A stretch of DNA of 64,000 nt from Nocardioides sp. Kera G14 (lineage in GTDB: Bacteria > Actinomycetota > Actinomycetes > Propionibacteriales > Nocardioidaceae). Position 1 is the first letter of the stretch. Each line of letters begins with the position of its first letter. Below the pieces are notes generated by a model. The model was given only the letters and a program-made list of their open reading frames with translations, searched no databases and had not been told where the DNA came from. Below are positions 1 through 63,069 of this stretch, piece after piece. The stretch lies in contig NZ_CP085839.1 of NCBI RefSeq assembly GCF_020715565.1, positions 1,488,001 through 1,552,000 of the forward strand. Direction: 5' to 3'. Position numbers and translations under genes: made by a program.

Positions 1-707
1 TGGGCGCCGCGGGAGCCGTCCTGCGACTTGATCGTCCAGCCGTCCGGGTCGATGTAGATCTGGTCGGTCGTGTGCAGGAACCACGGCTCGATCGCGATGA
101 CGAGGCCGGGCTCGAGCTTGTAGCCACGACCGGCCTTACCCGCGTTCGGGATGTGCGGGTCGCCGTGCATGGTGCGACCGACGCCGTGACCGCCGAACTG
201 GGTGTTGACCTTGAGTCCGTTGCGTTTGGCGACGACCTCGATCGCGTGGCTGATGTCGCCGATCCGGTTGCCGGCCTGGGCTGCGGCGATCCCGGCGTCG
301 AGGGCCTGGGTCGTGGCCTCGATGAGCTTGAGGTCCTTGGGGTCGGCGTTGCCGACCACGACGCTGAGGGCGCTGTCGGAGACCCAGCCGCCGAGGCTCG
401 CCGCGAAGTCCACGCTGAGCAGGTCCCCGTCCTGGAGGACGTAGTCGTGGGGGAGGCCGTGCAGAACGGCGTCGTTGACGCTGGTGCAGAGCACGTAGCC
501 GAAGGGCATCGCCCCGAAGCTGGGGTGGTAGTCGATGTAGCAGGACTCCGCACCGGCGTCCTTGATCATCCGGTGCGCGAGGGCGTCGAGCTCCAGCAGG
601 TTCACTCCGACCGCTGCCTTCTCCTGCAGGGCGAGGAGTACGTCGGCGACGAATCGCCCGGCGGGCTTCATCTGCTCGATCTGGGTCGGGGTGCGGAGCT
701 CGATCAC
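1..707 (-). CDS. map: Methionine aminopeptidase type I (3' end cut by window edge)
   Basis: Removes the N-terminal methionine from new proteins in the cytosol, after deformylation. The 235 visible residues read as a type I enzyme. Metal ligands Asp100 (SVDF), Asp111 (SDSAL), His174 (GGHGVG) and Glu207 (AIEPW) are visible, as is the substrate His83 (VLHGLP). The last ligand, a glutamate, lies beyond base 1. The GTG at 707 is chosen because the protein then begins with the usual short N-terminus (MIELRTPTQI) and a TAGGCT -10 element sits 7 nt upstream, suggesting a leaderless message. It diverges from the GH6 gene across 29 bases. Peptide deformylase, which acts just before it, is also in this window at 61018-61626. 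Confidence 0.95.
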   Translation of the reverse strand, partial: MIELRTPTQIEQMKPAGRFVADVLLALQEKAAVGVNLLELDALAHRMIKDAGAESCYIDYHPSFGAMPFGYVLCTSVNDAVLHGLPHDYVLQDGDLLSVDFAASLGGWVSDSALSVVVGNADPKDLKLIEATTQALDAGIAAAQAGNRIGDISHAIEVVAKRNGLKVNTQFGGHGVGRTMHGDPHIPNAGKAGRGYKLEPGLVIAIEPWFLHTTDQIYIDPDGWTIKSQDGSRGA

Positions 708-714
708 GGAGTCG

Positions 715-730
715 AGCCTACGTCTAGGCT
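715..730. promoter_or_regulatory. Back-to-back divergent -10 elements forming a palindrome
   Basis: AGCCTA-CGTC-TAGGCT is an inverted repeat with 6 bp arms. Read leftward, TAGGCT (720-715) lies 7 nt before the map GTG. Read rightward, TAGGCT (725-730) lies 6 nt before the GH6 GTG. Each would start transcription at or next to its start codon. Promoter function is inferred from spacing. Confidence 0.7.
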
Positions 731-736
731 GCTCCG

Positions 737-1666
737 GTGCGGGGATCAGGGAGGGCCACCCTCGTGGCCGTGGCCGTCGTCTGTCTTGTCGTGACCCTGC
801 TGGGCGGGACATCCGCGGTGGCGAAGCAGGGAAAGAGGCTCGACCCCCGGCTGACGCAGCCCGGCTACGCCGACACACACAGCTCTGCAGCGGTCCGCGG
901 AGGCCCCTACGCCTCGCTCGGGTCGGTGCCACAGGCGCTCTGGCTGGGGGCGGCGCCGGTGCGGACGGTGCGGGGTCAGCTGCGCGCCTACGTCCGTAGA
1001 GCGGCGGCCAGGCACCGGACGCCACAGGTGGTCCTCTACGCGATCCCGGACCGGGACTGCTCGGGTGGAGGCTGGGCCAGCCCCAGGGCGTACCTCCGGT
1101 GGGTCCGGGCGATCGCCTCCGTCCTCCGGGGCCGTCATGCGATCGCCGTCGTCGAGCCGGATGCACTGGCCATGGAGGACCGGTGCGGAGGGGCCGCCCG
1201 GCTGGCGACGCTCCGCGCGGCGACGAGGATCCTCGCCGCGAGCCGCACCTGGGTCTACCTGGACGCCGGGCACAGCAACTGGCTCACGGCCGAGACGGCT
1301 GCTGCGAGGCTGCGGCAGGCCGGGATCAGCTACGTCCGCGGATTCAGCCTCAACGTCGCCAACTTCCGCCCCACCCCGGAGGCCCAGGCGTATGGCGATG
1401 CGGTGGCCGCCGCCCTCGGTGCTCAGGGGATACCCGGCAAGCACTTCGTCATCGACACCTCACGCAACGGCGCCGCGCCCCTGGACACCCAGTGGTGCAA
1501 CCCGCCGTGGGCACGGGTGGGCCAGCGCCCGGCCATGCTCCGCACCGGAAGCCTCGACGGGCTGCTGTGGTTGAAGCACCCCGGCGAGAGTGACGGCCCC
1601 TGCAACGGCGGTCCGGCCTCGGGCTGGAGCGACCTCCTCGCTGGCCGCCTCCTCGGCCGCGCCTGA
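737..1666 (+). CDS. Secreted glycoside hydrolase family 6 protein (cellulase-type endoglucanase)
   Basis: Predicted to cut beta-1,4-glucan outside the cell with inversion of configuration. The 309-residue product starts with a signal peptide (residues 1-29, hydrophobic VAVAVVCLVVTLL, then SAVA). The GH6 signature VLYAIPDRDCSGG spans 99-111. The proposed general acid Asp142 is in VVEPDA. WVYLDAGHSNW (172-182), VIDTSRNG (238-245), CNPPWA and WLKHPGESDG (278-287, Asp286) are also GH6 landmarks. There is no carbohydrate-binding module or linker, so it is a bare catalytic domain. GTG at 737 is favoured by the -10 TAGGCT 6 nt upstream; there is no Shine-Dalgarno. Substrate could be another beta-glucan; the family call is firm, the substrate is not. 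Confidence 0.93.
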   Translation: MRGSGRATLVAVAVVCLVVTLLGGTSAVAKQGKRLDPRLTQPGYADTHSSAAVRGGPYASLGSVPQALWLGAAPVRTVRGQLRAYVRRAAARHRTPQVVLYAIPDRDCSGGGWASPRAYLRWVRAIASVLRGRHAIAVVEPDALAMEDRCGGAARLATLRAATRILAASRTWVYLDAGHSNWLTAETAAARLRQAGISYVRGFSLNVANFRPTPEAQAYGDAVAAALGAQGIPGKHFVIDTSRNGAAPLDTQWCNPPWARVGQRPAMLRTGSLDGLLWLKHPGESDGPCNGGPASGWSDLLAGRLLGRA

Positions 1667-1673
1667 GGGCGGG

Positions 1674-5685: not shown

Positions 5686-6953
5686 GCCTGCTGACGCCAG
5701 GCGGAGTCGCGCGGCGAGCGACGTCGGTCCAGGCGCCGGTCGAGCACCTCGCGCGCCTCGTCCCACCGGTCGGCGCGGAGCAGCGCAGCGATCCGGGCCT
5801 CCTCGACGATCTCGCGCTGGGCGTCGGAGCCGCCGACCCGCCAGACGTGGGGCTGCAGCCGGCACAGGGAATCGGCCGCCTCCGACGCGCGGCCCGACGC
5901 CATCAGCGCGAAGGCGTCGGCCATCGGCGCGATGACCTCACGCTGGGTGGCGTGCCGCTGGCGCCGGGCAGCGGCACCGACCTCCTGGAGCGCGGATACG
6001 TCGCCCATGGCCAGGTGGGCGACGAGGGTGTGCATCGCGAGGAACGGCGTGGTCGGCCGCGTCAGGGTCGTGGTGCTGGTGGCCGCGATGACCTCGTCCA
6101 TCGACGGCACGTCGGTCGCCCCCGGGGTCAGGGCCCAGCGGAAGAGGAGCGAGCCGGAGTCGACGAGGGCCCGGCAGCCGATGGCATGCCGGGGGTCCAG
6201 TTGCGTCTCGAAGCGGCGGCGCACGGCATCAAGGTCACCGAGGGTGAGCTCGTGGAGCGCGGCGTGCCAGGCGAAGTGGGTCAGGGACTCCGCGGTCGCG
6301 CCGTCCCCGACGACCCAGGCGTCCATCCAGGCGAGTCCGGCCTCGTGGTCGCCGGTCTCGTAGTGCGCGTGCGCCCGGGCGTGGGCGGAGTGCCCGGCGC
6401 TCGGCTCGAGGTCGAGGGACGCCGTGGCCAGGTCCATCGCCTCGTCGAAGCGCAGTTGCTCGGTGCGGATGAACGCCAGCAGGCCGCGGAACCACCAGTC
6501 GTCGCCGTACGCCGGCCGACATCGCTCCACGAGGGACCACGCCTCCTGGGGTACTTCGGTGGCGCCGGTGAAGGCGATCGTCGGGACGGCCGCGGAGAGC
6601 AGGAGGGCATCACGCGGGTGGGCCTCGAGATGGCGCAACAGCGGCTGCGAGTCGCCGCGGAGGTGCGCGGCCACGGCCGCGACGTGGCTCTGCTCCCGCT
6701 CGGTGCCGCGGGCCGCGTGCAGGGTCGCGGCCGCCATCCGGGCGTGCAGGTCGACCGACGCACCGAGCTCCTGACCCAGCAGGGCAAGGGCCGCGTGGCC
6801 CAGGGCGAAGGTCGGGTCGTAGGCGATGGCCTCGGCGAAGTGACGGGTCGCTCCGGTGCGCAGGCGCAGCACCTCACGCAGTCCGGCGTTGTAGGCGGCG
6901 GCTGCGGACGCGGAGGTGGTCAGGCACAGGCCGTACACGTCGGGCATACGCAT
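5673..6953 (-). CDS. TPR protein of the TTC38/StaR-like type
   Basis: A 426-residue alpha-helical protein built from degenerate tetratricopeptide-like helical pairs, seen in repeated A-x3-[GAS]-x2-[ALY] patterns (for example AEAIAYDPTFALGHAALALLG and ATASLDLEPSAGHSAHARAHAHYETGDH). This resembles the TTC38/StaR-like family, which is widespread but without an assigned biochemical role. No signal peptide or membrane segment; probably cytosolic and protein-binding. Its last 13 bases overlap the convergent Rieske gene. ATG at 6953 has no Shine-Dalgarno; TAGTTT lies 6 nt upstream. An AT-rich near-palindrome (6954-6967) covers that region and may be an operator. It diverges from uvrC. Confidence 0.75.
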   Translation of the reverse strand: MRMPDVYGLCLTTSASAAAAYNAGLREVLRLRTGATRHFAEAIAYDPTFALGHAALALLGQELGASVDLHARMAAATLHAARGTEREQSHVAAVAAHLRGDSQPLLRHLEAHPRDALLLSAAVPTIAFTGATEVPQEAWSLVERCRPAYGDDWWFRGLLAFIRTEQLRFDEAMDLATASLDLEPSAGHSAHARAHAHYETGDHEAGLAWMDAWVVGDGATAESLTHFAWHAALHELTLGDLDAVRRRFETQLDPRHAIGCRALVDSGSLLFRWALTPGATDVPSMDEVIAATSTTTLTRPTTPFLAMHTLVAHLAMGDVSALQEVGAAARRQRHATQREVIAPMADAFALMASGRASEAADSLCRLQPHVWRVGGSDAQREIVEEARIAALLRADRWDEAREVLDRRLDRRRSPRDSAWRQQAQAR

Positions 6954-6967
6954 GTAAGTAAACTAAC
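6954..6967 (-). promoter_or_regulatory. AT-rich palindromic promoter/operator before the TPR gene
   Basis: Read on the minus strand, GTTAGT-TT-ACTTAC is an inverted repeat with one mismatch per arm. It contains the -10 TAGTTT (6965-6960), 6 nt before the ATG. Such AT-richness is conspicuous here. A helix-turn-helix repressor could occupy it; no candidate regulator is adjacent. Confidence 0.5.
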
Positions 6968-7000: not shown

Positions 7001-7006
7001 TAATGT
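7001..7006 (+). promoter_or_regulatory. -10 element of uvrC (leaderless)
   Basis: TAATGT lies 6 nt before the uvrC GTG at 7013, and no Shine-Dalgarno is present, so transcription should begin at the start codon. No LexA box is visible in the 59-base divergent gap. Confidence 0.65.
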
Positions 7007-7012
7007 TTACCT

Positions 7013-8950
7013 GTGAGTGACCCCCGGACGTATCGACCCAAGGCGGGGGAGATCCCGACGAGTGCGGGGGTCTACCGGTTCCGGGATCCCAAGGGCCGCG
7101 TGATCTACGTCGGCAAGGCCAAGAACCTCCGCGCCCGGCTCTCGAACTACTTCCAGGACCTCGCCAACCTGCACCCGCGCACCGCGACCATGGTGACGAC
7201 GGCCGCCAGCGTCGAGTGGACGGTGGTCAACACCGAGGTCGAGGCGCTCCAGCTCGAGTGGACCTGGATCAAGGAGTTCGACCCGCGGTTCAACGTGATG
7301 TTCCGCGACGACAAGTCCTACCCCTGGCTCGCCGTCACGGTCTCCGACGAGTTCCCGCGCGTCATGGTCGGCCGCGGCGCGAAGCGGAAGGGCACGAAGT
7401 ACTTCGGCCCGTACTCCCACGCGTGGGCCATCCGGGAGACCGTCGACGCACTGCTCCGTGTCTTCCCGATGCGTTCCTGCAGCAACGGTGTCTTCAAGCG
7501 GAGCCAGCAGGTCGGGCGTCCCTGCCTGCTCGGCTACATCGACAAGTGCGCCGCACCCTGTGTCGGCAACATCTCGCCCGAGGACCACCGTGCGATCGTG
7601 GACGACTTCTGCGACTTCGTCGCCGGTCGCACCACCCACATCCAGCGGCGCCTGCAGCGGGAGATGCTGCACGCCAGCGACGAGCTCGAGTTCGAGCGGG
7701 CCGCCCGCCTGCGCGACGACCTCGCCGCCATCGACCGGGCGCTGGAGAAGCAGGCGGTCGTCCTCGGCGACGGTGCCGACGCCGACGTGATTGCGCTGGC
7801 CGAGGACCCGCTCGAGGTCGCCGTGCAGATCTTCCACGTCCGCGGCGGCCGCATCCGCGGCCAGCGCGGCTGGGTCGCCGACCGGGCCGACGAGGGCGAG
7901 ACCGACAAGCTGGTCGAGGACTTCGTCCTCCAGTTGTACGCCGGCACCGACCCCGACGACCGCGAGTCCATCCCGCGCGAGATCCTCGTGCCCACGCTGC
8001 CGCCCGACCTCGAGGCCCTGGAGGAGCTGCTCTCGGAGATCCGGGGAGCACGCGTCGGGATCCGGGTCCCGCAGCGCGGCGACAAGCGGGTCCTGATGGA
8101 GACGGTCGCGCGCAACGCCGGCCAGACGCTCGCATTGCACAAGACCCGCCGCGCCTCCGACCTGACCACCCGCTCCAAGGCGCTCGAGGAGATCGAGGAG
8201 GCGCTGGACCTTCCCGAGGCGCCGCTGCGGATGGAGTGCTTCGACATCTCCCACCTGCAGGGCACCGAGATCGTCGCCTCGATGGTGGTCTTCGAGGACG
8301 GCCTGGCCCGGAAGTCGGAGTACCGCCGCTTCATCATCAAGGGCCAGGACGGCTCCGACGACGTCCGGGCGATGCACGAGGTCATCACCCGGCGCTTCCG
8401 CCGGCTCCTGGACGACCAGGCGAACGCCACGGAGATCGATCCCGAGACAGGGCGGCCCGGCAAGTTCGCCTACTCGCCCGGCCTCGTGGTCGTCGACGGT
8501 GGCGCGCCCCAGGTGGCCGCCGCCGTACGGGCACTCGAGGAGCTCGGCATCGACGACATCCCTGTATGTGGACTGGCCAAGCGGCTGGAGGAGGTCTGGG
8601 TCCCCGGTGACGAGGACCCCGTGATCCTTCCGCGCACGTCGGAGGGGCTCTACCTGTTGCAGCGGCTGCGCGACGAGGCCCACCGCTTCGCGATCACGCA
8701 CCACCGCAACCGGCGCTCGAAGTCGATGGTCGAGTCGATCCTCGACAACGTCGCCGGCATGGGCGAGGTGCGACGTCGCACACTGATGAAGCATTTCGGC
8801 TCGCTCAAGAAGCTCCGGTCGGCCACGATGGAGGAGATCGCGGCGGTGCCGGGCATCGGACCGGTGACGGCGGCGGCGATCAAGCGGGCCGTCGATCTCG
8901 ACGAGGCCGGGGTGGCGGTCAACACGACGACGGGGGAGATCATCGAATGA
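7013..8950 (+). CDS. uvrC: Excinuclease ABC subunit C
   Basis: Makes both incisions around DNA damage once UvrB is bound. The 645-residue protein has, in order: a GIY-YIG nuclease (GVYRFRD...[14 protein letters not shown], about 19-46), a cysteine-bearing stretch near 155-185, a UVR domain that contacts UvrB ([16 protein letters not shown], about 222-237), the RNase H-like 5' nuclease ([18 protein letters not shown], about 410) and C-terminal helix-hairpin-helix repeats ([30 protein letters not shown]). GTG at 7013 is the start because the protein then begins normally and a -10 is 6 nt upstream. It heads the uvrC-rapZ-yvcK-whiA unit; its stop overlaps the rapZ ATG (ATGA). Confidence 0.98.
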
Positions 8951-10850: not shown

Positions 10851-12852
<2,002 letters not shown>

Positions 12853-14860: not shown

Positions 14861-14866
14861 TAGGAT
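14861..14866 (+). promoter_or_regulatory. -10 element of secG
   Basis: TAGGAT lies 8 nt before the secG GTG (14875) and there is no Shine-Dalgarno. Read-through from the gap operon remains possible. Confidence 0.5.
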
Positions 14867-14874
14867 TCCTGATC

Positions 14875-47209: not shown

Positions 47210-47217
47210 AGTGACTG

Positions 47218-47227: not shown

Positions 47228-47234
47228 CCACGGC

Positions 47235-48041: not shown

Positions 48042-48047
48042 TAGGTT
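48042..48047 (+). promoter_or_regulatory. -10 element of nfeD (leaderless)
   Basis: TAGGTT lies 6 nt before the ATG at 48054. Confidence 0.65.
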
Positions 48048-48053
48048 CCAGTC

Positions 48054-48503
48054 ATGGAGTGGCTGGGGGACCATCTGTGGGCCGCATGGCTCGGGATCGC
48101 CGCAGTCCTGCTGATCAGTGAGCTGGCCAGCCTGGACCTCGTCCTCCTCATGCTCGCGATCGGTGCCTTCGGCGGTGCCGTCACGGCTGTGTTGACCGAC
48201 GCCTGGGAGATCCAGATCGTCGTCGCGGTCGTCATCGCGGTGGGGCTGCTGGCCGTCGTACGGCCGGGAATCGTACGTCGCCTGCAGACCGGGCCCGACC
48301 TGCTGATCGGTCCTGAGCGGATGATCGGGGTGCAGGCCCAGACGTTCGTCGCCCTCAGCGCCGAGGAGCCCGGTCAGGTGAAGATCGACGGGGAGCTGTG
48401 GACCGCTCGCCCCGCGGACGGCGCCGCTCCCATCAAGCCCGGCCAGACCGTCGTGGTCACGGCCATCAACGGCGCCACCGCCATCGTGGCGCCCGTCGCG
48501 TAG
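48054..48503 (+). CDS. NfeD-like membrane protein
   Basis: A 149-residue protein of the short NfeD type: two to three hydrophobic helices (about 7-75, WAAWLGIAAVLLISELASLDL, LLMLAIGAFGGAVTAVL and IVVAVVIAVGLLAVV) followed by a soluble OB-fold domain (TFVALSAEEPGQVKIDGELWTARP...GQTVVVTAINGATAIV). Short NfeD proteins are almost always encoded with an SPFH protein, as here (30 bases to the next gene), and are thought to work with it in membrane microdomains. Confidence 0.92.
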   Translation: MEWLGDHLWAAWLGIAAVLLISELASLDLVLLMLAIGAFGGAVTAVLTDAWEIQIVVAVVIAVGLLAVVRPGIVRRLQTGPDLLIGPERMIGVQAQTFVALSAEEPGQVKIDGELWTARPADGAAPIKPGQTVVVTAINGATAIVAPVA

Positions 48504-49463: not shown

Positions 49464-50409
49464 GCCAGCGGTTGATGACGTCGTACGCGCATCCCCGCAC
49501 CTCCGGGAGGGACAGCACGACGTCGTGACGGGCTCCGACGATCGCCTTGTAGGTGACGTCGGAGCCGACCGCGGTCGCCCAGCGCCGGATCTGCTGGACG
49601 TCGAGCACGAGGTCGGCGTTGTGTGCGCGCTCGGTCATGTGCACCGTCCAGTGCGACTGGTCCGAGGAGAGGACCAGCACCGGGACGGGGACGTCGAGGA
49701 CCGCGTGCAGGCGGGCGTGCCCATCCCGGATCGCCTTGAGCCAGCCGGCGTACACCGGGAACGACGTCAGGGGCTTGAGATCGAGCTCGAAGTCCCACTC
49801 GCCCTCATGGTCGCGGTGCAGGCTGCGTGCGTAGACGCCGCTGACATGGCGCCGGATGTGGAACTTCGGCCGGCGGGCACCGAGCTGCTTGATCACGGGC
49901 GTGCCGAAGACGCGCATCAATGTCGAGCCCTGCAGGTCGAACCACGGCGAGTTGAGCACCATGCCGACGAGCTGCTCAGGTCGGCGGTCGTGCGCCCACA
50001 GCGGCATCGTGAGGCCGCCGGTGGAGTGGGCGGTGACGACCACCTCGGTGTGTCCGTCGCGGTCGACGATCCGCTCCCACGCCTGGTCGATCTCCTCGTA
50101 GTACGTCTGCAGATCGGTGACGTAGGCGGGCGTCTGGTGGGGCAGCAGGGAGCGGCCGTACTTGCGCAGGTCGAGGGCGTAGAAGTCGTAACCCTTGTTC
50201 GTCCACCACTCCGCGAACTCCTTCTGGAAGAAGTAGTCGGAGAAACCGTGGATGTGCAGCACCGCCTTGGTGCTGGCGCCGGCCGCCTTCGTGGTCTTCG
50301 TGGTCTTCGCCGGACGCTTCACGAGCGTCGCGATCACGTCCCCCTCGTCGTCCGGAGTCAGCGTCAGCGTCTCAGCGGTGTACGGCGGCCCAAGGCGATC
50401 GGTCTCCAC
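49444..50409 (-). CDS. Alpha/beta hydrolase (serine lipase/esterase-like)
   Basis: A 321-residue cytosolic hydrolase. The nucleophile elbow is TAHSTGGLT (Ser in AHSTGG), the oxyanion motif is LHIHGFSDYFF near residue 75, DLRKYGRS follows, and the late histidine is probably that in VGARHDVVLS. It resembles the monoacylglycerol-lipase-like hydrolase family. Residues about 38-60 are a Lys/Thr/Ala-rich low-complexity stretch. GTG at 50409 is preferred: TACATT is 7 nt upstream, and the long open frame beyond it overlaps eutB. It diverges from eutB across 48 bases. Confidence 0.88.
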   Translation of the reverse strand: METDRLGPPYTAETLTLTPDDEGDVIATLVKRPAKTTKTTKAAGASTKAVLHIHGFSDYFFQKEFAEWWTNKGYDFYALDLRKYGRSLLPHQTPAYVTDLQTYYEEIDQAWERIVDRDGHTEVVVTAHSTGGLTMPLWAHDRRPEQLVGMVLNSPWFDLQGSTLMRVFGTPVIKQLGARRPKFHIRRHVSGVYARSLHRDHEGEWDFELDLKPLTSFPVYAGWLKAIRDGHARLHAVLDVPVPVLVLSSDQSHWTVHMTERAHNADLVLDVQQIRRWATAVGSDVTYKAIVGARHDVVLSLPEVRGCAYDVINRWLTAWVS

Positions 50410-50416
50410 GGCCGTC

Positions 50417-50422
50417 AATGTA
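50417..50422 (-). promoter_or_regulatory. -10 element of the alpha/beta hydrolase gene (leaderless)
   Basis: TACATT on the minus strand, 7 nt before the GTG at 50409. Confidence 0.6.
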
Positions 50423-50445: not shown

Positions 50446-50451
50446 TAGCGT
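50446..50451 (+). promoter_or_regulatory. -10 element of eutB (leaderless)
   Basis: TAGCGT lies 6 nt before the GTG at 50458. No leader is left in which a cobalamin riboswitch could sit. Confidence 0.6.
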
Positions 50452-50457
50452 CTCCGG

Positions 50458-51867
50458 GTGCGCTACACAACGACGGTCCTGGGCAGGACCTTCACGTTCT
50501 CGGGGCTGGTCGAGGTCATGGCCAAGGCGTCGGCGCCGAAGTCGGGCGACGTCCTCGCCGGCTGCGCTGCGGAGAGCGACGCCGAGCGCGCGGCGGCTCG
50601 TTATGTGCTCGCAGACCTGCCGCTGTCCACCTTCCTCGCCGAGCAGCTCGTGCCGTATGAGACCGATGAGGTGACGCGGCAGATCATCGACTCCCACTCG
50701 GCTACCGCGTTCGCGGAGGTGTCGATGCTGACGGTCGGCGGCTTCCGGGAGTGGCTTCTCGAGGCCGCGGCCCGTGATGACGCGGCAGCCCTGGCGCGGG
50801 TCGCGCCCGGCCTCACGCCGGAGATGGTCGCCGCCGTCTCCAAGCTCTGCCGCAACCAGGACCTCATCGCGATCGCCGCGGCCTGCGTCGTGACGTCCCG
50901 CTTCCGCACGACCGTGGGACTGGCCGGTCGGCTGTCGACCCGCCTCCAGCCCAACCACCCCACCGACGACGCGACCGGCATCGCCGCCTCGATCCTGGAC
51001 GGCCTGCTCCTGGGCAGCGGCGATGCCGTCATCGGGATCAATCCGGCGTCGGACAACCCGCGCCAGGTGGCGGCGCTGCTGGCGCTGATCGACGACCTGC
51101 GCCAGCGCTATGACGTTCCGACGCAGTCGTGCGTGCTCACCCACGTGACCACCACGATCGACCTGATCACCGCCGGCGCGCCCGTGGACCTGCCGTTCCA
51201 ATCGATCGCCGGTACCGAGGGCGCCAACGCGGGCTTCGGCGTCTCGCTGTCGATGCTGGCGGAGGCCAACACCGCCGCTCGTGAGCTTCGTCGCGCGACC
51301 GTCGGAGATCCGGCCACGGCCAACGTCATGTACTTCGAGACCGGCCAGGGCTCGGCCCTCTCCGCCGACGCCCACCGCGGCACCGACGGCCTCCCCGTCG
51401 ACCAGCAGACCCTCGAGGCCAGGGCGTACGGCGTCGCGCGCGCCTATGAGCCCTTCCTGGTCAACACGGTGGTGGGCTTCATCGGTCCGGAGTACCTCTA
51501 CGACGGCAAGCAGGTCATCCGCGCCGGGCTGGAGGACCACTTCTGCGGCAAGCTGCTCGGCGTCCCGATGGGCGCCGACGTCTGCTACACGAACCACACC
51601 GAGGCCGACCAGGACGACATGGACACGCTCCTCACCCTGCTGGGCGTAGCCGGCCTCAACTACGTGATGGGGATCCCGGGGGCGGATGACGTCATGCTGG
51701 GATATCAGTCGACGTCCTTCCACGACGCGCTCTACGTCCGGAAGGTGCTGGGCAAGCGGCCTGCGCCGGAGTTCGAGGCGTGGCTCGACGGGCTCGGACT
51801 GCTCGGCGTAGACGGGAGCATCCGAGCGGTCGACCCGGCCACCTCGCCCCTCCGGGAGCTGGTGTGA
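50458..51867 (+). CDS. eutB: Ethanolamine ammonia-lyase, large subunit
   Basis: Adenosylcobalamin-dependent enzyme splitting ethanolamine into acetaldehyde and ammonia. The 469 residues (about family length) carry the EutB landmarks: DDATGIAASILDGLLLGSGDAVIGINPASD, PFQSIAGTEGANAGFGVSL, YFETGQGSALSADAHRG (substrate site Glu), EDHFCGKLLGVPMGADVCYTNH and PGADDVMLGYQSTSFHDAL. GTG at 50458 follows TAGCGT by 6 nt. Its stop overlaps the eutC GTG (GTGA). No reactivase (eutA) or microcompartment shell genes are in the window. Confidence 0.96.
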   Translation: MRYTTTVLGRTFTFSGLVEVMAKASAPKSGDVLAGCAAESDAERAAARYVLADLPLSTFLAEQLVPYETDEVTRQIIDSHSATAFAEVSMLTVGGFREWLLEAAARDDAAALARVAPGLTPEMVAAVSKLCRNQDLIAIAAACVVTSRFRTTVGLAGRLSTRLQPNHPTDDATGIAASILDGLLLGSGDAVIGINPASDNPRQVAALLALIDDLRQRYDVPTQSCVLTHVTTTIDLITAGAPVDLPFQSIAGTEGANAGFGVSLSMLAEANTAARELRRATVGDPATANVMYFETGQGSALSADAHRGTDGLPVDQQTLEARAYGVARAYEPFLVNTVVGFIGPEYLYDGKQVIRAGLEDHFCGKLLGVPMGADVCYTNHTEADQDDMDTLLTLLGVAGLNYVMGIPGADDVMLGYQSTSFHDALYVRKVLGKRPAPEFEAWLDGLGLLGVDGSIRAVDPATSPLRELV

Positions 51868-52641: not shown

Positions 52642-52647
52642 TAGGTT
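52642..52647 (+). promoter_or_regulatory. -10 element of the APC permease gene (leaderless)
   Basis: TAGGTT lies 6 nt before the ATG at 52654, giving the permease its own start even though it follows eutC by 37 bases. Confidence 0.6.
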
Positions 52648-52653
52648 GCCGCC

Positions 52654-54270
52654 ATGCCAGAAGGACATGAGACCGTCGACCCCCACCTCGACACGCAGTC
52701 GGCCGACGAACTGCACCTCGCCAAGCTCGGCTACAAGCAGGAGCTCGCCCGGACGTGGTCCGGCTTCTCGAACTTCGCGATCTCCTTCTCGATCATCTCG
52801 ATCCTCGCCGGCTGTCTGACGACGTTCTACGTCGGTTGGAACAACGGTGGCCCGGCCGCGATCGCCTGGGGGTGGCCGATCGTCTCGGTCTTCATCCTGA
52901 TCGTCGGCTTCTGCATGGCCGAGCTGGTGTCGGCGTACCCCACCTCGGGCGGGATCTACTGGTGGGCGAGCAAGCTCGGCGGACCCATGGCCGGTTTCTA
53001 CACCGGCTGGCTCAACCTGATCGGACTGCTCGCCATCGACGCGTCCGTGGCCTACGGCTGCGCAGGCTTCTTCGACACCTTCGTCGGCCTCTTCAGCGAC
53101 TCCTGGGCGGCGAACTACTCGTTGACGCGGGTCTTCATCGAGTTCGCAATCATCCTGGTCCTCGCGGGCCTGATCAACGTCTTCTCGAGCCATCTGCTCG
53201 CCCTGATCAACAACGTCTCCGTGTGGTGGCACGTGGCGGGCGCGGCGATCATCGTGATCATGCTGTGGTTCTTCACGGCTGACGGCACCTCGCACGCCTC
53301 CGTCGGCGACGTCTTCGCCAGCGGCGTGAACAACACCGGCTTCTTCCACGGCCACACGGGCGGCATCGGCTTCCTGCTCTACGTCCTACCGATGGCGGGC
53401 ATCCTCACGCAGTACACGATCACCGGGTACGACGCCTCCGTGCACCTGTCCGAGGAGACGCAGGGTGCCGCGAACAGCGCAGCCAAGGGAATCTGGCAGT
53501 CGATCCTCTTCTCCGCGATCGGCGGCTGGATCCTGCTGCTCAGCCTGCTCTTCGCCGTCCAGTCCAAGGACGACCTGACCGCCGGCGGTGGCGGGATCTT
53601 CGTCCTGCTCGGACAGGCGTTCACGCCGCACACCGAGGCGATCATCGTCTTCATCTCCGCGTGCGCACAGTTCTTCTGCACCTGCGCCTGCATGACGTCG
53701 ACGAGCCGGATGTTCTTCGCCTTCTCCCGTGACGGCGCCGTGCCGGGTTCGAGGATCTGGTCGAAGCTGAACGCGCACAAGGTGCCGGTCTACGGCGTCA
53801 TCGCCTCGGTCGTGATCGCGCTGGTCATCACGCTGCCCGCGCTGATCAAGGTCGACATCAACGGCGCACCGAGCCCGATCGCCTTCTACGCCGTCGTCTC
53901 GATCGGGGTGATCGGCCTCTACCTCGCCTTCGCCATCCCGATCTTCCTGCGCTGGAAGAAGGGCGACGCCTTCGAAGCGGGCGCCTGGAACCTCGGTGGC
54001 AAGTACAGGTGGATGTGCCTGGTCGCAGTCGCCGAGATCGTCGTCATGTCGATCGTGGGCCTGCTGCCGACCGCCAGCGTCGGCATGCCGGGGATGGACG
54101 GCTTCTCGATGAAGTTCGTGAACTACGCGATCATCGTCCTGCCGGCAGCGCTGATCCTGCTGACCGTCTACTGGTTCGCCTCAGTGCGGCACTGGTTCAC
54201 CGGGCCGATCAGCAACCTCGACACTCCGCCCTCCTCAGCTCCGGACGATCTGCTGCCCGAGCCCGCCTGA
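52654..54270 (+). CDS. APC-family permease, probably for ethanolamine
   Basis: A 538-residue transporter with about twelve membrane helices, of the amino acid/polyamine/choline (APC) class. The N-terminus is polar (about 1-30); FSNFAISFSIISILAGCLTTF opens helix 1 and GWPIVSVFILIVGFCMAELVSAYPTSGGIYWWASKLGG is the classic APC helix 2-loop block, with ITGYDASVHLSEET later. Its position after eutBC suggests ethanolamine as substrate; that is inference from context, and amino acids or GABA are possible. Confidence 0.9.
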   Translation: MPEGHETVDPHLDTQSADELHLAKLGYKQELARTWSGFSNFAISFSIISILAGCLTTFYVGWNNGGPAAIAWGWPIVSVFILIVGFCMAELVSAYPTSGGIYWWASKLGGPMAGFYTGWLNLIGLLAIDASVAYGCAGFFDTFVGLFSDSWAANYSLTRVFIEFAIILVLAGLINVFSSHLLALINNVSVWWHVAGAAIIVIMLWFFTADGTSHASVGDVFASGVNNTGFFHGHTGGIGFLLYVLPMAGILTQYTITGYDASVHLSEETQGAANSAAKGIWQSILFSAIGGWILLLSLLFAVQSKDDLTAGGGGIFVLLGQAFTPHTEAIIVFISACAQFFCTCACMTSTSRMFFAFSRDGAVPGSRIWSKLNAHKVPVYGVIASVVIALVITLPALIKVDINGAPSPIAFYAVVSIGVIGLYLAFAIPIFLRWKKGDAFEAGAWNLGGKYRWMCLVAVAEIVVMSIVGLLPTASVGMPGMDGFSMKFVNYAIIVLPAALILLTVYWFASVRHWFTGPISNLDTPPSSAPDDLLPEPA

Positions 54271-56156: not shown

Positions 56157-58410
56157 CATCTCCCTCTCGGGTCCTCGCCTGCGAGAAGTCGACGCCGTAG
56201 CGGTCGATGAAGGCGAGCACCTCCTCGGCCGTGCCCGCCGGGGCGAAGTAGTGCCCCTGCACGTGGTCGACACCCAGCCCTTCGACGAGCGCAAGCTGTT
56301 CAGCCGTCTCCACACCCTCCATGACCACGGTGAGATCGAGGCTGCGGAGCATCCTGACCGTGTGGCCCAGGAGGGTGAGCGCTCGCGCTCCGCCCAACAG
56401 GAAGGAACGGTCGAGCTTCACGGTGTGCCAGTCCCGGCGGACGAGGAGCGGGATCCGGTTACCGCCGGCGCCGAAGTCATCCAGCGCGAGGCCGATGCCG
56501 TGCTCCTCGAGGAGCGTGGCGAGGCCGTCCTCGGCCGTGTCCCAGTGGTCGATGCTGCCGCGCTCGGTCAACTCGAGCACGAGGTCCACGGGAGCGATGC
56601 CGGCCTGCTCGATGACCCAGGCGATCAGCGGGCTGTCCGGCCGGAACTGCTCCTGCTCCAGGTTGATGCTCAGTGACAGGCGGCGATTGACCCGCCGCGC
56701 CGCCTCGGCCGAGGTGGAGATCGCCTGCTTCGCGAGCTGACGGGTCACGATGTCCATCACGCCGGCACGCACCGCTGAGCCCACGAGCTCCTCGGGGTTG
56801 AGCGTGCCCAGCAGCGGCAGGCTGCCGCGCAGGAGCGCCTCCCAACCGACGAGCTCGAGGCTCTTCACGTCGATGATGGGCTGGTAGGCGACGTCGACGC
56901 CGTGGTCGATGAGCCGACGGATGATCTCCTCCTCGTTGACCTCGACGATGGGAGCCATGGGGAAGTGGCGGGCCGCCTTCCGCTCACGGAGGTCCTTCTC
57001 CGCACGGGCCAGGATGACATCGGCGGTCTCGGTGCGGACGGCGGAGAGCACCCGGCCGATCGACGCGGTGACGGAGATCGTCAAGCCGTCGGTCTCGACC
57101 GGCTGTCGGACGATCGCCGCCAGTCCTCGGCACAGATCGTCGAGGTGCGCCTCGTCACGGACGTTGCGGGCGAGACCCACGAACTCGTCACCGCCGAAAC
57201 GCCCGAAGCGCCACTGCGGTGACTGGTCCTGGAGCCGGCCGCCGATCGCGGTGAGCAGCTGGTCGGCGCGCAGGTGGCCGAATTCGGTGTTCACCTGCTT
57301 GAAGTGGTCGAGGTCGAGGAAGACGACCCCGATGCGCTCCCGGCCACCCCGGGTGCGAGAGACGTCACGCAGCTCGTCGCGCCAGTGCTCGTACTCCCAC
57401 AGCCCGGTCAGTTCGTCCGTGACGGTCGCGACCCTGAGCTGGCTCTCGCGCGCGGCCTGTGCGTGGGAGGCGCGGGCCATGGCGGCGAGCCCTGCGACCA
57501 GGCGGGCGTCGTACCGGCTGAAGCTGACGTCGCCGGGTTCGCGCCGGATGACGAGCACTGAGCCGGAGTGGATCTGCTCACTGAGCGTGTCGGGGCCGCC
57601 CGACCGGGCCTCGACGGAGATGTCGGCGGCGCGGACGTGGTCGCTGACGAGGCGGATCAGTGTGTCGTCGATGAGGTCCGCAGGCCACGGCGTCGTAATG
57701 GAGGCTTCGGTGAGCGCCTCCGTGACGCGGGCCAGCATGGCGATCCGCCCGAACTGCGCGACAGCCACGCCACCGAGGCCGATGATCGCCGAGACGGCCA
57801 CGGCGGGCCACGGGTCGTCGGAGAAGTCCTTGATCTGCTCCACGACCAGGACCAGGCCCGCTGCGTAGACCACCCCGGCGCAGGCGAGGACGAAGGCGCG
57901 GCGCCCGAATGCACTGGCGCGGTCACCCGGCCTGAGCCACTCGAGGAGGGCGTGGGCGAGCGCGAAGGCCACCAGGCCGGCGACCACGCGGTCGTACGGC
58001 GCGTGGCCCCAGTCGGCCAGGGGCACGATGACCGTCAGCACCACGCCGGCAAGGACGACGACCGCGGCACGCGGAAGGCTGGAGATGAACGGGCCGACCA
58101 GGACCCGGTAGCCCACGACGACCGCGATCGCCCAGGGCGGGAGTACCCGCAGCAGGTCGGCGGAATGGTCGATCCCCAGGATGGCCAGACACACGCCGGC
58201 GATCACCGGGGTCGCGTCGCGTGCCGTCGATTCGCGGACGAACGCACCAGCGATGAGCGCCAGCACCGCGGCGCCGCCGAGGGTGATCAGCGCATAGGTG
58301 GAGACGTGCGGGACGCCGTCCTGGGACCACGCAGCAGCGCCGACGGCCACCGCAGCCAGCGCGCCGACCGAGACCAGCGCGTCGTAGAGCGAGCGCCGGC
58401 TGACAGACAT
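56131..58410 (-). CDS. Membrane-bound bifunctional GGDEF-EAL protein (c-di-GMP turnover)
   Basis: A 759-residue protein with seven to eight N-terminal membrane helices (about 8-225), a linker (about 225-310), a GGDEF domain (about 320-480) and an EAL domain (about 500-745). The GGDEF motif is intact as FGGDEFVGLAR with an upstream FLDLDHFKQVN. The EAL domain has GWEALLRG, INLE, ELTERGS, LDDFGAGG (usual DDFGTG has Thr for Ala), KLDRSF and MEGVETAEQ. Both catalytic activities look possible. ATG at 58410 follows TAGCCT by 7 nt. Confidence 0.95.
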   Translation of the reverse strand: MSVSRRSLYDALVSVGALAAVAVGAAAWSQDGVPHVSTYALITLGGAAVLALIAGAFVRESTARDATPVIAGVCLAILGIDHSADLLRVLPPWAIAVVVGYRVLVGPFISSLPRAAVVVLAGVVLTVIVPLADWGHAPYDRVVAGLVAFALAHALLEWLRPGDRASAFGRRAFVLACAGVVYAAGLVLVVEQIKDFSDDPWPAVAVSAIIGLGGVAVAQFGRIAMLARVTEALTEASITTPWPADLIDDTLIRLVSDHVRAADISVEARSGGPDTLSEQIHSGSVLVIRREPGDVSFSRYDARLVAGLAAMARASHAQAARESQLRVATVTDELTGLWEYEHWRDELRDVSRTRGGRERIGVVFLDLDHFKQVNTEFGHLRADQLLTAIGGRLQDQSPQWRFGRFGGDEFVGLARNVRDEAHLDDLCRGLAAIVRQPVETDGLTISVTASIGRVLSAVRTETADVILARAEKDLRERKAARHFPMAPIVEVNEEEIIRRLIDHGVDVAYQPIIDVKSLELVGWEALLRGSLPLLGTLNPEELVGSAVRAGVMDIVTRQLAKQAISTSAEAARRVNRRLSLSINLEQEQFRPDSPLIAWVIEQAGIAPVDLVLELTERGSIDHWDTAEDGLATLLEEHGIGLALDDFGAGGNRIPLLVRRDWHTVKLDRSFLLGGARALTLLGHTVRMLRSLDLTVVMEGVETAEQLALVEGLGVDHVQGHYFAPAGTAEEVLAFIDRYGVDFSQARTREGDVMTPRSPA

Positions 58411-58417
58411 GCCCGCA

Positions 58418-58423
58418 AGGCTA
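58418..58423 (-). promoter_or_regulatory. -10 element of the GGDEF-EAL gene (leaderless)
   Basis: TAGCCT on the minus strand, 7 nt before the ATG at 58410. It lies in the 27-base gap after the PEBP gene. Confidence 0.6.
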
Positions 58424-58437: not shown

Positions 58438-58965
58438 TCAGTGTTGGTAGGTCCCGACCAAGACTGCGCGTCCGGCGGTCTTGAACGCCAGGTTGAATCC
58501 GACGACCGCCGGGGTCGCGTCCGAGTCGACGCCGAGCTTCTCGTCGGTCACGGCATGCACGACGAAGTAGTAGCGGTGCACCTGGTCACCCGCGGGCGGG
58601 GCCGCGCCGGTGAACTCTCGCGTCCCCAGGTCGTTGCGGACGTGGAAGGCACCGCCGGGCAAGGTGTCGTCGCTTGCGCCGGCGCCTGTGTCGAGCGAGG
58701 TGACGTCCGCCGGGATGTCGACGACGACCCAGTGCCAGAAGCCGCTCACGATCGGGGCGTCGGGGTCGTAGCAGGTGACGACGTACGACTTCGTGCCCTC
58801 GGGGCCGGGCTCCCAGCTGAGCTGGGGTGACGTGTTGCCGCCCTCGTTGACCTGCGCGTCATTCAGCGGCTGGCCGTCGGTGACGTCGGAGCTGGTCACG
58901 GAGAAGGTGGGGACGGTGGGAAGAAGCTCGTAAGGGTCGGGGTGGACCGGGCGTTCGAGACTCAT
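58438..58965 (-). CDS. YbhB/YbcL-type PEBP protein
   Basis: A 175-residue phosphatidylethanolamine-binding-protein fold, no signal peptide. [45 protein letters not shown] and the pocket histidine in [11 protein letters not shown] are the family motifs (CR1/CR2). Function in bacteria is poorly known. The ATG at 58965 is supported by TACTGT 7 nt upstream and gives [16 protein letters not shown]; an open extension of 37 residues overlaps the divergent cysG gene and is rejected. Confidence 0.9.
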
Positions 58966-58972
58966 GTCCTCG

Positions 58973-58978
58973 ACAGTA
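58973..58978 (-). promoter_or_regulatory. -10 element of the PEBP gene (leaderless)
   Basis: TACTGT on the minus strand, 7 nt before the ATG at 58965. Confidence 0.6.
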
Positions 58979-61037: not shown

Positions 61038-61626
61038 CGGGCCAGTCCTCGGGGAACTCGGCGGCGGCCTTGTCGTGCTGCTTGGCGAGCTTCTTGCGGG
61101 CACGGTCCGAGAGCGCGTCGGCGAAGACGGTGCCGTAGAGATGGTCGGTCTCGTGCTGCAGGCAGCGGGCCAAGAGCCCGCCGCCCTCGAAGGTCACCGG
61201 GTGACCGTCGAGTCCGACGCCATCGACCCGTGCCCAGTCGGGGCGGGCGCGGTCGACGAAGGCACCGGGGAAGGAGAGACAGCCCTCGTCGTCGTTGTCG
61301 ATCGTCCGCTCGCGGCCCTCGGGCAGCGTCAGGACGGGATTGCACACCACGCCGACCCAGCGTTCACCGGTGTCGTCGGGGCAGTCGAACACGAACAGGG
61401 AGAGGTCCTCGCCGATCTGGCACGCGGCGAGGCCGACGCCGTCGGCGGCGTACATCGTGGCGACCATGTCCGCAGCGAGGGTGCGGAGATCGGCGTCGAA
61501 GACGGTCACCTCGGCGAGGCGGCGGTGCATCACGGGAGTGCCCCAGCGGACGACCGGGCGAACCGTCCCGCCCTCGGGAAGGGCGCCGTACGGCGCATGC
61601 TCGGCGGGCGTCTCCGGGGCGTTCAC
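61018..61626 (-). CDS. def: Peptide deformylase
   Basis: Removes the N-formyl group from new proteins, before methionine aminopeptidase. The 202 residues contain the three motifs in order: GVGLAACQIG, EGCLSFPG (Cys ligand) and QHETDHLYG (His ligands and Glu). GTG at 61626 is preferred because TAGTCT is 7 nt upstream, although the frame is open well beyond. It diverges from the acyl-CoA dehydrogenase pair across 78 bases. The first 35 residues form an extension typical of actinobacterial forms. Confidence 0.95.
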   Translation of the reverse strand: MNAPETPAEHAPYGALPEGGTVRPVVRWGTPVMHRRLAEVTVFDADLRTLAADMVATMYAADGVGLAACQIGEDLSLFVFDCPDDTGERWVGVVCNPVLTLPEGRERTIDNDDEGCLSFPGAFVDRARPDWARVDGVGLDGHPVTFEGGGLLARCLQHETDHLYGTVFADALSDRARKKLAKQHDKAAAEFPEDWPVTPRRD

Positions 61627-61633
61627 GGCGTCG

Positions 61634-61639
61634 AGACTA
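61634..61639 (-). promoter_or_regulatory. -10 element of def (leaderless)
   Basis: TAGTCT on the minus strand, 7 nt before the def GTG at 61626. Confidence 0.6.
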
Positions 61640-61678
61640 GGTCCTCGGGGAGACCGGGAGCCAATCTGTAGCGCAATG

Positions 61679-61695
61679 TGTAACTCCGAGTTACA
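61679..61695 (+). promoter_or_regulatory. TetR-type operator before the acyl-CoA dehydrogenases
   Basis: TGTAACTC-C-GAGTTACA is a perfect inverted repeat with 8 bp arms and a 1-base centre. It overlaps four bases of the predicted -10 TACAGT (61692-61697), so a repressor bound here would block the gene pair. Many actinobacterial fatty-acid genes are under TetR-family control. Confidence 0.75.
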
Positions 61696-61697
61696 GT
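61692..61697 (+). promoter_or_regulatory. -10 element of the acyl-CoA dehydrogenase pair (leaderless)
   Basis: TACAGT lies 7 nt before the ATG at 61705. It is overlapped by the palindrome at 61679-61695. Confidence 0.65.
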
Positions 61698-61704
61698 TTC
61701 TCGC

Positions 61705-63069
61705 ATGTCCCTCCTGAACAGCCTCAAGGGCGGTGGCCGCTTCGGCCTGGCGTCCACCGAGTCGCGCGATCCCATCGGGTACGCCGTCGCGGCGCTCAAC
61801 CAGCTGGCACAGAGCCCGCTCCTCGACCGTCTGGGCGTCCGGAAGCAGGCCGAGCAGACGGTCTTCACCGCGACGCGCAGCGGCTTCAAGGCCATGACCG
61901 TCGCGGGCCGCACCTTCGCCAAGAAGGGCAGCAAGGGCAAGCCCGGCACGCGTGCCGCGACCGCCTCCCGCCCCGGCGTCTTCGACCTCACCCCGACCGA
62001 GGACGAGCAGATGCTCGTCGACGTCGTCGCCGAGTTCGCCGAGGAGGTGCTGCGTCCCGCTGCCAACGAGGCCAACGAGGCGTGCGCCGCGCCGGACCCG
62101 CTCCTCAAGTCCTCCCTCGAGATCGGCCTGCCGATCCTCGGCGTCCCTGAGGAGCTCGGCGGTGTGTACGAGGAGCGCTCCGCGACCGCCGGCGTGCTGG
62201 TCGCCGAAGCACTCGCCAAGGGCGATATGGGCCTTGCCGTCGCCACCCTCGCGCCCGGTGCCGTGGCCACCGCCCTGAGCCTGTGGGGCACCGACGAGCA
62301 GCAGCAGACCTACCTGCCCGCCTTCACGGGCACGGACGTGCCGGCCGCCTCGCTGGCGCTCAACGAGCCCACTGTCCTCTTCGACGTGCTGGCGCCCGCG
62401 ACCACGGCCAGCCGCAGTGGCGCCAACCTCGTGCTCAACGGGGCCAAGTCGCTCGTCGCCCGCGGTGCCGACGCCGAACTCTTCATCGTCGGCGCCTCGC
62501 TCGACGGCAAGCCCGTGCTGGTCCTCGTCGAGTCCGGCACCGAGGGCCTCACGGTCGAGGGCGACCCCGCCATGGGTGTCCGGGCCGCCGGCCTCACCAC
62601 GCTGTCGCTGACCGACGTGATCGTCCCGGCCGAGAACATCCTCGGTGAGACCGACGGGTCGACGTACGTGGAGTGCGTGCGGCTCTCGCGCCTGGCCTGG
62701 TGTGCACTCGCGATCGGAACGGCCCAGGCCGTACTCGACTACGTGACGCCGTACGTCAAGGAGCGCGAGGCGTTCGGTGAGCCGATCGCCCACCGCCAGG
62801 CCGTCGCCTTCATGGTCGCCAACATCGCCATCGAGCTGCAGGCGATGCGGCTTGTCACCTGGAAGGCCGCCTCCCGCGTGGCCCAGGGAATCGACGCCAC
62901 CCGTGAGATCGCGCTGGCCCGCAAACTCTGCGCCGACAAGGGCATGCAGATCGGCCTCGACGGCGTCCAGCTGCTCGGTGGTCACGGCTTCGTCAAGGAA
63001 CACCCCGTCGAGCGGTGGTACCGCGACCTGCGCGCCATCGGGATCATGGAAGGGACGGTGCTCGTCTGA
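61705..63069 (+). CDS. Acyl-CoA dehydrogenase with N-terminal extension
   Basis: FAD enzyme of fatty acid or sterol-type beta-oxidation, 454 residues. An N-terminal extension of about 85 residues, basic and helical (LKGGGRFGL...GRTFAKKGSKGKPGTR), precedes the normal ACAD fold (DLTPTEDEQMLVDVVAEFAEEVLRP). The middle domain is SLALNEPTVLFDVLAPATT, and the C-terminal helices contain EREAFGEPIAHRQAVAFMVANIAIELQAMRLVTWKAA, ending GGHGFVKEHPVERWYRDLRAIGIMEGTVLV, where Glu in MEGT is the likely base. It is coupled to a second ACAD by TGATG, like mycobacterial heteromeric pairs. Confidence 0.93.
   Translation: MSLLNSLKGGGRFGLASTESRDPIGYAVAALNQLAQSPLLDRLGVRKQAEQTVFTATRSGFKAMTVAGRTFAKKGSKGKPGTRAATASRPGVFDLTPTEDEQMLVDVVAEFAEEVLRPAANEANEACAAPDPLLKSSLEIGLPILGVPEELGGVYEERSATAGVLVAEALAKGDMGLAVATLAPGAVATALSLWGTDEQQQTYLPAFTGTDVPAASLALNEPTVLFDVLAPATTASRSGANLVLNGAKSLVARGADAELFIVGASLDGKPVLVLVESGTEGLTVEGDPAMGVRAAGLTTLSLTDVIVPAENILGETDGSTYVECVRLSRLAWCALAIGTAQAVLDYVTPYVKEREAFGEPIAHRQAVAFMVANIAIELQAMRLVTWKAASRVAQGIDATREIALARKLCADKGMQIGLDGVQLLGGHGFVKEHPVERWYRDLRAIGIMEGTVLV

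What the first reader, a model, noticed from the sequence alone, without database searches (positions are those of the whole stretch)
707..61705. Leaderless transcription is the rule: 25 of about 35 unit heads have TANNNT 6-8 nt before the start codon
I checked the start of each first gene on both strands. Heads with the hexamer at 6-8 nt and no Shine-Dalgarno are: map, GH6, MBL, TPR, uvrC, gap, secG, tkt, ctaB, ABC 26565, ABC 34971, APH 37308, DUF3099, fabG, sixA, 47209, 47235, nfeD, 50409, eutB, APC 52654, GGDEF-EAL, PEBP, def and ACAD 61705. Recurring forms are TAGGCT (4), TAGGGT, TAGGTT, TAGCGT and TAGGAT. In a GC-rich sequence a chance TANNNT in that three-position slot is about 1% by my rough estimate. 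Internal cistrons instead overlap by ATGA/GTGA/TGATG. Leaderless mRNA is known to be common in actinobacteria; the strength of the rule here allows start codons to be fixed from promoter position.
Basis: partly seen in the sequence, partly recalled or inferred. Interest (0 to 1): 0.7.

Follow-up and report, generated by a model that had tools for sequence, protein, structure and literature searches.

The report
Leaderless genes with start-hugging promoters
In this GC-rich actinobacterium roughly a quarter of the genes appear to be transcribed from exactly their first codon, from a short promoter box six to eight bases upstream; this is a known habit of such bacteria, here unusually strong, and a few head-to-head gene pairs seem to share one box between them.

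Summary
All 25 named starts carry TANNNT 6-8 nt upstream; other spacings predict 3.5, and 25 of the window's 55 TANNNT sit there. In 564 kb of the same 3.47-Mb genome the slot holds 166 against 27.5 expected; starts called from coding potential alone show the same spike. The hexamer rarely goes with Shine-Dalgarno, is kept at orthologous starts (56 of 78 ortholog cells, against 4 of 40 and 5 of 101) and is depleted in coding DNA on both strands. Best reading: the -10 box of leaderless genes. RNA was not examined.

'The rule' is too strong genome-wide: 59 of 148 divergent heads, 77 of 148 with free start choice; about a quarter of genes by extrapolation. The phenomenon is known (Zheng 2011).

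Less familiar: 11 places in 564 kb (seven with a reading frame both ways, one of them window 47209/47235) where two divergent starts 22-25 nt apart share one TA step, so that the intergenic region is little more than a bidirectional leaderless promoter; five congeners give 3 in 967 kb.

The parts
705..720 (-). GTG start 707 of map with TAGGCT at gap 7
   Evidence: TIGR00500
725..739 (+). GTG start 737 of a GH6 protein with TAGGCT at gap 6
   Evidence: PF01341
2298..2312 (-). ATG start 2300 of a metallo-beta-lactamase-fold protein with TATCAT at gap 6; weakest case
   Evidence: PF00753; hexamer in 0 of 2 congener orthologs
6951..6965 (-).
   Evidence: 1 of 3 orthologs
7001..7015 (+). GTG start 7013 of uvrC with TAATGT at gap 6
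   Evidence: same offset in 4 of 5 congeners and in other families of the order
11841..11856 (+). ATG start 11854 of gap with TAGGGT at gap 7
   Evidence: 0 of 5 orthologs have it, all 5 have SD
14861..14877 (+).
   Evidence: 5 of 5 orthologs
22969..22984 (-). GTG start 22971 of tkt with TAGGCT at gap 7
   Evidence: 2 of 5 orthologs
22999..23013 (+). GTG start 23011 of ctaB with TAGACT at gap 6
   Evidence: 1 of 5 orthologs, others SD
26563..26577 (-).
   Evidence: 5 of 5 orthologs
34959..34973 (+).
   Evidence: 4 of 5 orthologs
37295..37310 (+).
   Evidence: 5 of 5 orthologs
43021..43035 (-).
   Evidence: 5 of 5 orthologs
43094..43109 (+).
   Evidence: 5 of 5 orthologs, at shifted starts
44607..44621 (+).
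   Evidence: 4 of 4 orthologs
47207..47223 (-). GTG start 47209 (no Pfam match) with TATCGT at gap 8; shares its TA step (47222-47223) with the next part
47222..47237 (+). ATG start 47235 of an ABC ATPase with TACGAT at gap 7; shares the TA step 47222-47223
   Evidence: 5 of 5 orthologs, 4 at the same offset
48042..48056 (+).
   Evidence: 3 of 3 orthologs
50407..50422 (-). GTG start 50409 of an alpha/beta hydrolase with TACATT at gap 7
   Evidence: 1 of 4 orthologs
50446..50460 (+). GTG start 50458 of eutB with TAGCGT at gap 6
   Evidence: no ortholog found in the five congener regions
52642..52656 (+).
   Evidence: 0 of 1 orthologs (SD there)
58408..58423 (-).
   Evidence: no ortholog found
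58963..58978 (-). ATG start 58965 of a PEBP protein with TACTGT at gap 7
   Evidence: 2 of 2 orthologs at the same offset
61624..61639 (-). GTG start 61626 of def with TAGTCT at gap 7
   Evidence: 2 of 2 orthologs, at shifted starts
61692..61707 (+).
   Evidence: 2 of 2 orthologs at the same offset

Best explanation
The hexamer is the -10 element (TANNNT) of housekeeping promoters, placed so that RNA polymerase starts on, or within a base or two of, the first base of the start codon. The mRNA then has no leader and no Shine-Dalgarno; a 70S ribosome most likely loads directly on the 5' start codon (described for leaderless mRNAs elsewhere; inferred here). Later genes of a unit are read by SD or by coupling through ATGA/TGATG overlaps. 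No -35 consensus stands out, so TANNNT carries much of the promoter information and is kept out of coding DNA. Shown here: position, abundance, scarcity of SD, conservation, depletion in coding DNA. Inferred: the transcription start and the mode of ribosome loading.
For: Sharp peak at gaps 6-8, found without gene calls (25 vs 3.5 in the window, 166 vs 27.5 in 564 kb) and with promoter-blind starts. No peak in E. coli (80 vs 72.3). SD at hexamer-led vs other starts: 2 of 47 vs 18 of 71, 2 of 33 vs 34 of 111, 0 of 12 vs 58 of 137. Orthologs in five congeners: 56 of 78 cells keep it, vs 4 of 40 and 5 of 101. Depletion of TANNNT inside genes on both strands, 76 vs 261.5 and 45 vs 190.7, points to a DNA-level signal. 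The start is a purine (50 GTG, 42 ATG, no TTG) in all 92 hexamer-led called genes of 464 kb. In the related P. acnes 872 of 1106 mapped promoters have TAnnnT and 50 annotated start codons coincide with mapped TSSs (PMC3848588, passages).
Against: No RNA data. A good part of heads shows neither hexamer nor SD (for divergent heads of the 464-kb sample, 53 of 118), which my method cannot explain. Some hexamer-led heads are not conserved: gap, 52654 and 2300 have it in no congener ortholog found.
Confidence: 0.93

Rival explanations
1. The hexamer is a -10 box, but the mRNAs carry very short leaders (1-10 nt), or starts lie a few bases inside the called frame, rather than being strictly leaderless.
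For: Spacing spreads over 6-8 with a small tail at 9-10 (15 and 10 vs a mean of 9.2). In P. [quoted passage not shown]
Against: 145 of the 166 sites have a gap of 6 or 7, the usual -10 to TSS distance; the start is ATG or GTG in all 92 hexamer-led called genes.
Confidence: 0.15
2. The hexamer is a signal read in the RNA at translation initiation, not a promoter.
For: It sits at a fixed distance from the start codon and replaces SD.
Against: Its form and spacing are those of a -10 box; it is depleted in coding DNA on the antisense strand as strongly as on the sense strand (0.24 and 0.29), which an RNA-level translation signal would not explain; divergent starts can share one TA step.
Confidence: 0.03
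3. The pattern is mainly a result of choosing starts that fit, in a genome with many possible start codons.
For: Free start choice raises the background from 1.4% to 5.1%.
Against: Starts chosen from codon usage alone show the same peak, 59 of 148 at divergent heads; the gene-free scan corrects for it (166 vs 27.5); E. coli, G049 and G083 give none by the same scan.
Confidence: 0.01

Closest known systems
TA-led (leaderless) genes of Actinobacteria, Zheng et al. 2011, PMC3160421 (abstract and one section read)
   Same: TAnnnT a fixed short distance before the start, no SD; reported in 86 of 89 actinobacterial genomes, at around 20% of genes
   Different: Nothing in kind; the share here is about a quarter of genes by extrapolation, and the excess per 100 kb is the highest of the 16 actinobacterial genomes I sampled in this way, this one included
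The -10-motif next to the ORF in Deinococcus, Zhong et al. 2025, PMC12340547 (passages)
   Same: TANNNT beside the ORF acts as the -10 of leaderless genes; spacing matters; used to correct annotated starts
   Different: Other phylum; tested by mutation there, by sequence alone here
Leaderless mRNAs of Propionibacterium acnes (PMC3848588) and Mycobacterium smegmatis (PMC6448022), mapped by RNA-seq (passages)
   Same: TAnnnT promoters, many start codons at or near the TSS, ATG and GTG both used; M. smegmatis 24% leaderless
   Different: RNA data exist there, none here; in P. acnes a GnTTnG -35 was seen for translation genes, which I did not find at these heads
Bidirectional promoters with a shared -10, PMC12825309 (passages); Warman 2021 seen only as a cited reference
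   Same: Divergent TSSs at set distances, one of the three common ones being 23 bp, which is the shared-TA geometry seen here
   Different: Here both TSSs would be start codons; the 18-bp form, commonest there, was not found in this genome's 464 kb; the word leaderless does not occur in that paper's main text
Selection against spurious -10 motifs, Froula and Francino 2007, PMC1939733; Yona 2018, PMC5906472 (passages)
   Same: -10-like words avoided in coding DNA
   Different: 3.4- and 4.2-fold depletion here against 1.2-fold in the E. coli sample by the same measure

Membership tests
Leaderless (TA-led) genes | TANNNT at a fixed short distance from the start, beyond chance | tested here: met
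   25 vs 3.5 in the window, 166 vs 27.5 in 564 kb; blind starts
Leaderless (TA-led) genes | No SD at these starts | tested here: met
   2 of 47, 2 of 33, 0 of 12 vs 18 of 71, 34 of 111, 58 of 137
Leaderless (TA-led) genes | Transcription starts on the start codon | not testable with these tools
   needs RNA data
Housekeeping sigma (SigA-type) promoters | -10 hexamer TANNNT | tested here: met
   by construction of the scan; middle bases favour G (52%, 45%, 41%) in 80 aligned heads
Housekeeping sigma (SigA-type) promoters | -35 element at about 17 bp | tested here: not met
   no column above 0.12 bits upstream of the hexamer; TTG not enriched; a -35 is often absent or weak in such promoters (general knowledge)
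Bidirectional promoters with a shared -10 | Two opposite -10 boxes sharing a TA step, with set distance between starts | tested here: met
   offset +1: 10 in 464 kb, all other offsets at most 2; 7 of 11 in 564 kb have a frame both ways
Bidirectional promoters with a shared -10 | Both directions transcribed in the cell | not testable with these tools
   needs RNA data
P1 / RecA-NDp (PafBC) damage promoters, for uvrB, dnaB, radA | tTGTCRgtg, 8 nt, TAnnnT | tested here: inconclusive
   8, 8 and 7 of 8 bases at three DNA-repair or replication genes; 7-of-8 matches are 3 at this spacing vs at most 2 at 52 others, 6-of-8 matches are not enriched (6 vs 8 at the next spacing)

The most novel reading that the evidence does not exclude
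This lineage has a recurrent class of minimal bidirectional leaderless promoters: two head-to-head genes 22-25 nt apart whose -10 boxes share one TA step, so that a single 10-bp element sets both transcription starts and both translation starts and fills most of the intergenic region; any further promoter or regulator contact must lie inside the opposite coding sequence. At least at 47209/47235 it looks like a shortened form of an ordinary divergent pair (25 nt here; 36-72 nt in the eight of ten congeners examined where both starts have a hexamer). The two genes would compete for polymerase.
Probability: 0.6. Interest if true: 0.6.

Novelty: new member of a known kind. Interest (0 to 1): 0.42.

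Why it matters
It gives promoters and start codons of this genome by one rule, without RNA data, and shows a genome in which the -10 hexamer is so rare that 36% of the copies in the sample sit on the leaderless slot. The shared-TA pairs, if confirmed, are compact natural bidirectional promoters and a way to study how polymerase chooses direction and how ribosomes load on leaderless mRNA.

Tried and rejected
Loss of the anti-SD sequence: rejected; two 16S loci exist and the one I read has CACCTCC at its end. A -35 consensus: none found. Exclusion of A after the hexamer as a directionality device: 1 of 99 at slots, but only 18 of 460 over all TANNNT, so not special. Ribosomal protein S21 as a marker: no match in 60 of 60 sampled actinobacterial genomes, this one included, so it separates nothing. 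This genome against five congeners: 59 of 148 vs 42 of 178 divergent heads, p = 0.002; with training size matched and the window left out 48 of 128, p = 0.011; suggestive only. The counts for G002 and G054 were wrong (extra loci were loaded) and were replaced. Of the four shared-TA places that fail the two-frame test, two lie in the window (34948/34971 and 50409/50434), so the window has one good case, not three. In some searches and 41 loci from minus-strand matches were not turned round; I use only the rows of plus-strand matches, and for counts. The 967 kb of congener sequence counts 20 kb of G002 twice. Window scans for tRNAs and Rfam families at gathering scores gave none.
Full report
What was checked. 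The window is G000:C1:1488001-1552000 of a single-contig genome of 3,469,009 bases; it is 69.4% GC. The genome lies in a genus of which 24 other species were sampled; one of these, G006, has a contig of the same length as a Nocardioides terrae record, so the organism is probably a Nocardioides (inference). The whole genome could not be loaded, so I used the window plus 25 stretches of 20 kb (564 kb, 16%). Comparison: spaced stretches of 15 other actinobacterial genomes and 100 kb of E. coli K-12, and the region orthologous to the window in five congeners. My gene caller uses codon usage and start-codon type only, so its starts know nothing of promoters.

The observation. Spacings 15-60 predict 3.5. 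In 564 kb the counts at spacings 3 to 11 are 5, 7, 3, 78, 67, 21, 15, 10, 6, with a mean of 9.2 at spacings 15-60. With promoter-blind starts, 59 of 148 divergent heads, 40 of 181 same-strand heads with a gap of 15 nt or more, and 12 of 170 closer cistrons have it at 6-8. By the gene-free scan E. coli has no peak (80 vs 72.3), nor have G049 and G083 of the same phylum (22 vs 26.7; 3 vs 4.0).

How strong. The excess is 24.6 per 100 kb in this genome and 33.6 in the window. The five congeners give 12.2 to 22.3, three genomes from other families of the order 4.3 to 14.4, six further actinobacteria -4.7 to 16.2, and a seventh (G063, 51% GC) 12.9 on a background of 84. Spread over the genome, 24.6 per 100 kb would be some 850 of about 3,360 genes, a quarter (extrapolation). 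So the hexamer is the commonest single signal at sure heads, not the rule for all units. Since about a fifth of the mapped promoters of P. acnes lack TAnnnT (872 of 1106 have it), the true share of leaderless heads may be higher (inference).

What it is. SD tetramers are rare at these starts and commoner at others: 2 of 47 vs 18 of 71 (divergent), 2 of 33 vs 34 of 111 (same strand, gap of 15 or more), 0 of 12 vs 58 of 137 (closer) in the 464-kb sample. I compared the window genes with orthologs in five congeners (29-95% protein identity): where this genome has the hexamer, 56 of 78 ortholog cells have it too (17 of 20 genes in at least one congener), against 4 of 40 for heads without it and 5 of 101 for close cistrons (cells of one gene are not independent). 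At uvrC it is at the same offset in four of five congeners and in members of other families of the order. Turnover exists: gap has TAGGGT here and SD in all five congeners; ctaB has a hexamer here and in one of five. No -35 element stands out in 80 aligned heads. Of the 118 divergent heads of the 464-kb sample, 47 have the hexamer and 18 more an SD tetramer; the other 53 have neither, which may be wrong starts, other -10 forms or other sigma factors.

Depletion of the hexamer inside genes. Among TA steps in coding interiors, T at the sixth position occurs 76 times against 261.5 expected from T at the same codon phase further on, and 45 against 190.7 on the antisense strand; all three phases on both strands share in it. 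The ratio is 0.85 on both strands in the E. coli sample and 1.05 and 1.16 in G049, which has no leaderless peak. Against a simple link: G083, also without a peak, shows 0.38 and 0.18, and the congener G012 shows 1.02 on the sense strand (8 vs 7.8) with 0 vs 7.5 on the antisense. So the depletion follows the promoter type rather than leaderlessness as such. Avoidance of -10 words is known (PMC1939733 and PMC5906472, passages); the size here is the point. In the sample 36% of all TANNNT, in the window 45%, sit on the slot.

Divergent pairs. In the 464-kb sample 23 of 59 divergent pairs have the hexamer for both starts, with free start choice. Counting every pair of opposite slots regardless of gene calls, one relative offset stands out: +1, where the two boxes share the TA step, 10 times, all other offsets from -60 to +60 at most 2. 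One more came with the last 100 kb. Seven of these 11 have a frame of 178 aa or more on both sides: 5-formyltetrahydrofolate cyclo-ligase/unnamed, deoC/unnamed, a sulfurtransferase-like protein/cobT, glucosyl-3-phosphoglycerate synthase/galE, unnamed/a protein with an adenylylsulfate kinase domain, no Pfam match/ABC ATPase (window 47209/47235), and PxpA-like/prolyl oligopeptidase-like. In the other four one side has only 4-14 codons, so they may be chance or one-sided. Five congeners give 3 in 967 kb (frames not checked for one); 11 of 14 in this genome has p = 0.002 by the share of bases, but the class was noticed before it was tested. At the galE pair, none of 13 orthologs in relatives shows the 23-nt arrangement.

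The window pair. At 47235 eleven relatives were looked at. In nine a hexamer-led opposite start is present: at 53 nt in five (G001, G015, G011, G008, G009) and at 36, 39, 72 and 97 nt in one each (G013, G014, G016, and G025 of another family); at these distances the boxes are separate. In two (G006, G002) none was found. The opposite frame was followed only to the end of a 301-base piece in seven of them, and its homology to 47209 was seen only for G006, G014 and G002. So the shared box here looks like a shortened form of an older two-box layout (inference). The geometry equals the 23-bp class of E. coli bidirectional promoters (PMC12825309, passages). Searches of the open-licence library with 'divergent', 'bidirectional promoter', 'leaderless', 'bacteria' (3 papers) and with at least four of 'leaderless', 'divergently transcribed', 'overlapping promoters', 'bidirectional', 'start codon' (4 papers) listed, by title and start of abstract, nothing on a -10 shared by two leaderless genes; other literature was not searched.

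Link to regulation. The mycobacterial LexA-independent damage promoter tTGTCRgtg-8 nt-TannnT (PMC5656591, passages) fits the slots of uvrB (L094), dnaB (L102) and radA (L324) with 8, 8 and 7 of 8 bases and hexamers 6-7 nt before ATG. Matches of 7 or more are three at this spacing and at most two at any of 52 others; matches of 6 or more are not enriched. The support lies in the gene names more than in the count; dnaB and radA do not occur in that paper's main text.

Verdict. A correct observation of a known phenomenon, at the strong end of the genomes sampled, with one possibly new twist, the shared-TA leaderless pair, and one striking measure, the depletion of the hexamer elsewhere.

Noticed in passing
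L094 6583 (-), L102 3818 (-), L324 15261 (-); window 7013 (+): uvrB, dnaB and radA have a P1/RecA-NDp-like (PafBC) box exactly 8 nt before the hexamer of their leaderless slot; uvrC in the window has a weaker form, with TGTCGG at the same place in several relatives.
   Followed up: partly
window 11841-11856: gap has a leaderless slot here while all five congener orthologs have SD at the same start: a lineage-specific switch of a central metabolic gene.
   Followed up: partly
564-kb sample of G000, coding interiors: TANNNT is depleted 3.4-fold (sense) and 4.2-fold (antisense) against phase-matched controls.
   Followed up: yes
L085 10354/10378, L087 13519/13544, L090 15499/15523, L099 3946/3970 and 12448/12472, L328 9220/9244, window 47209/47235: Head-to-head genes 23-25 nt apart whose two -10 boxes share one TA step.
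   Followed up: partly
G000 and five congeners, divergent gene pairs: The median gap between divergent called genes is 83 nt in this genome against 93 to 167.5 nt in the five congeners (n = 74 and 9-25).
   Followed up: no
60 genomes of the phylum: No match to ribosomal protein S21 (PF01165) in 60 of 60 sampled actinobacterial genomes, this one included, while 6 of 14 control genomes match.
   Followed up: no
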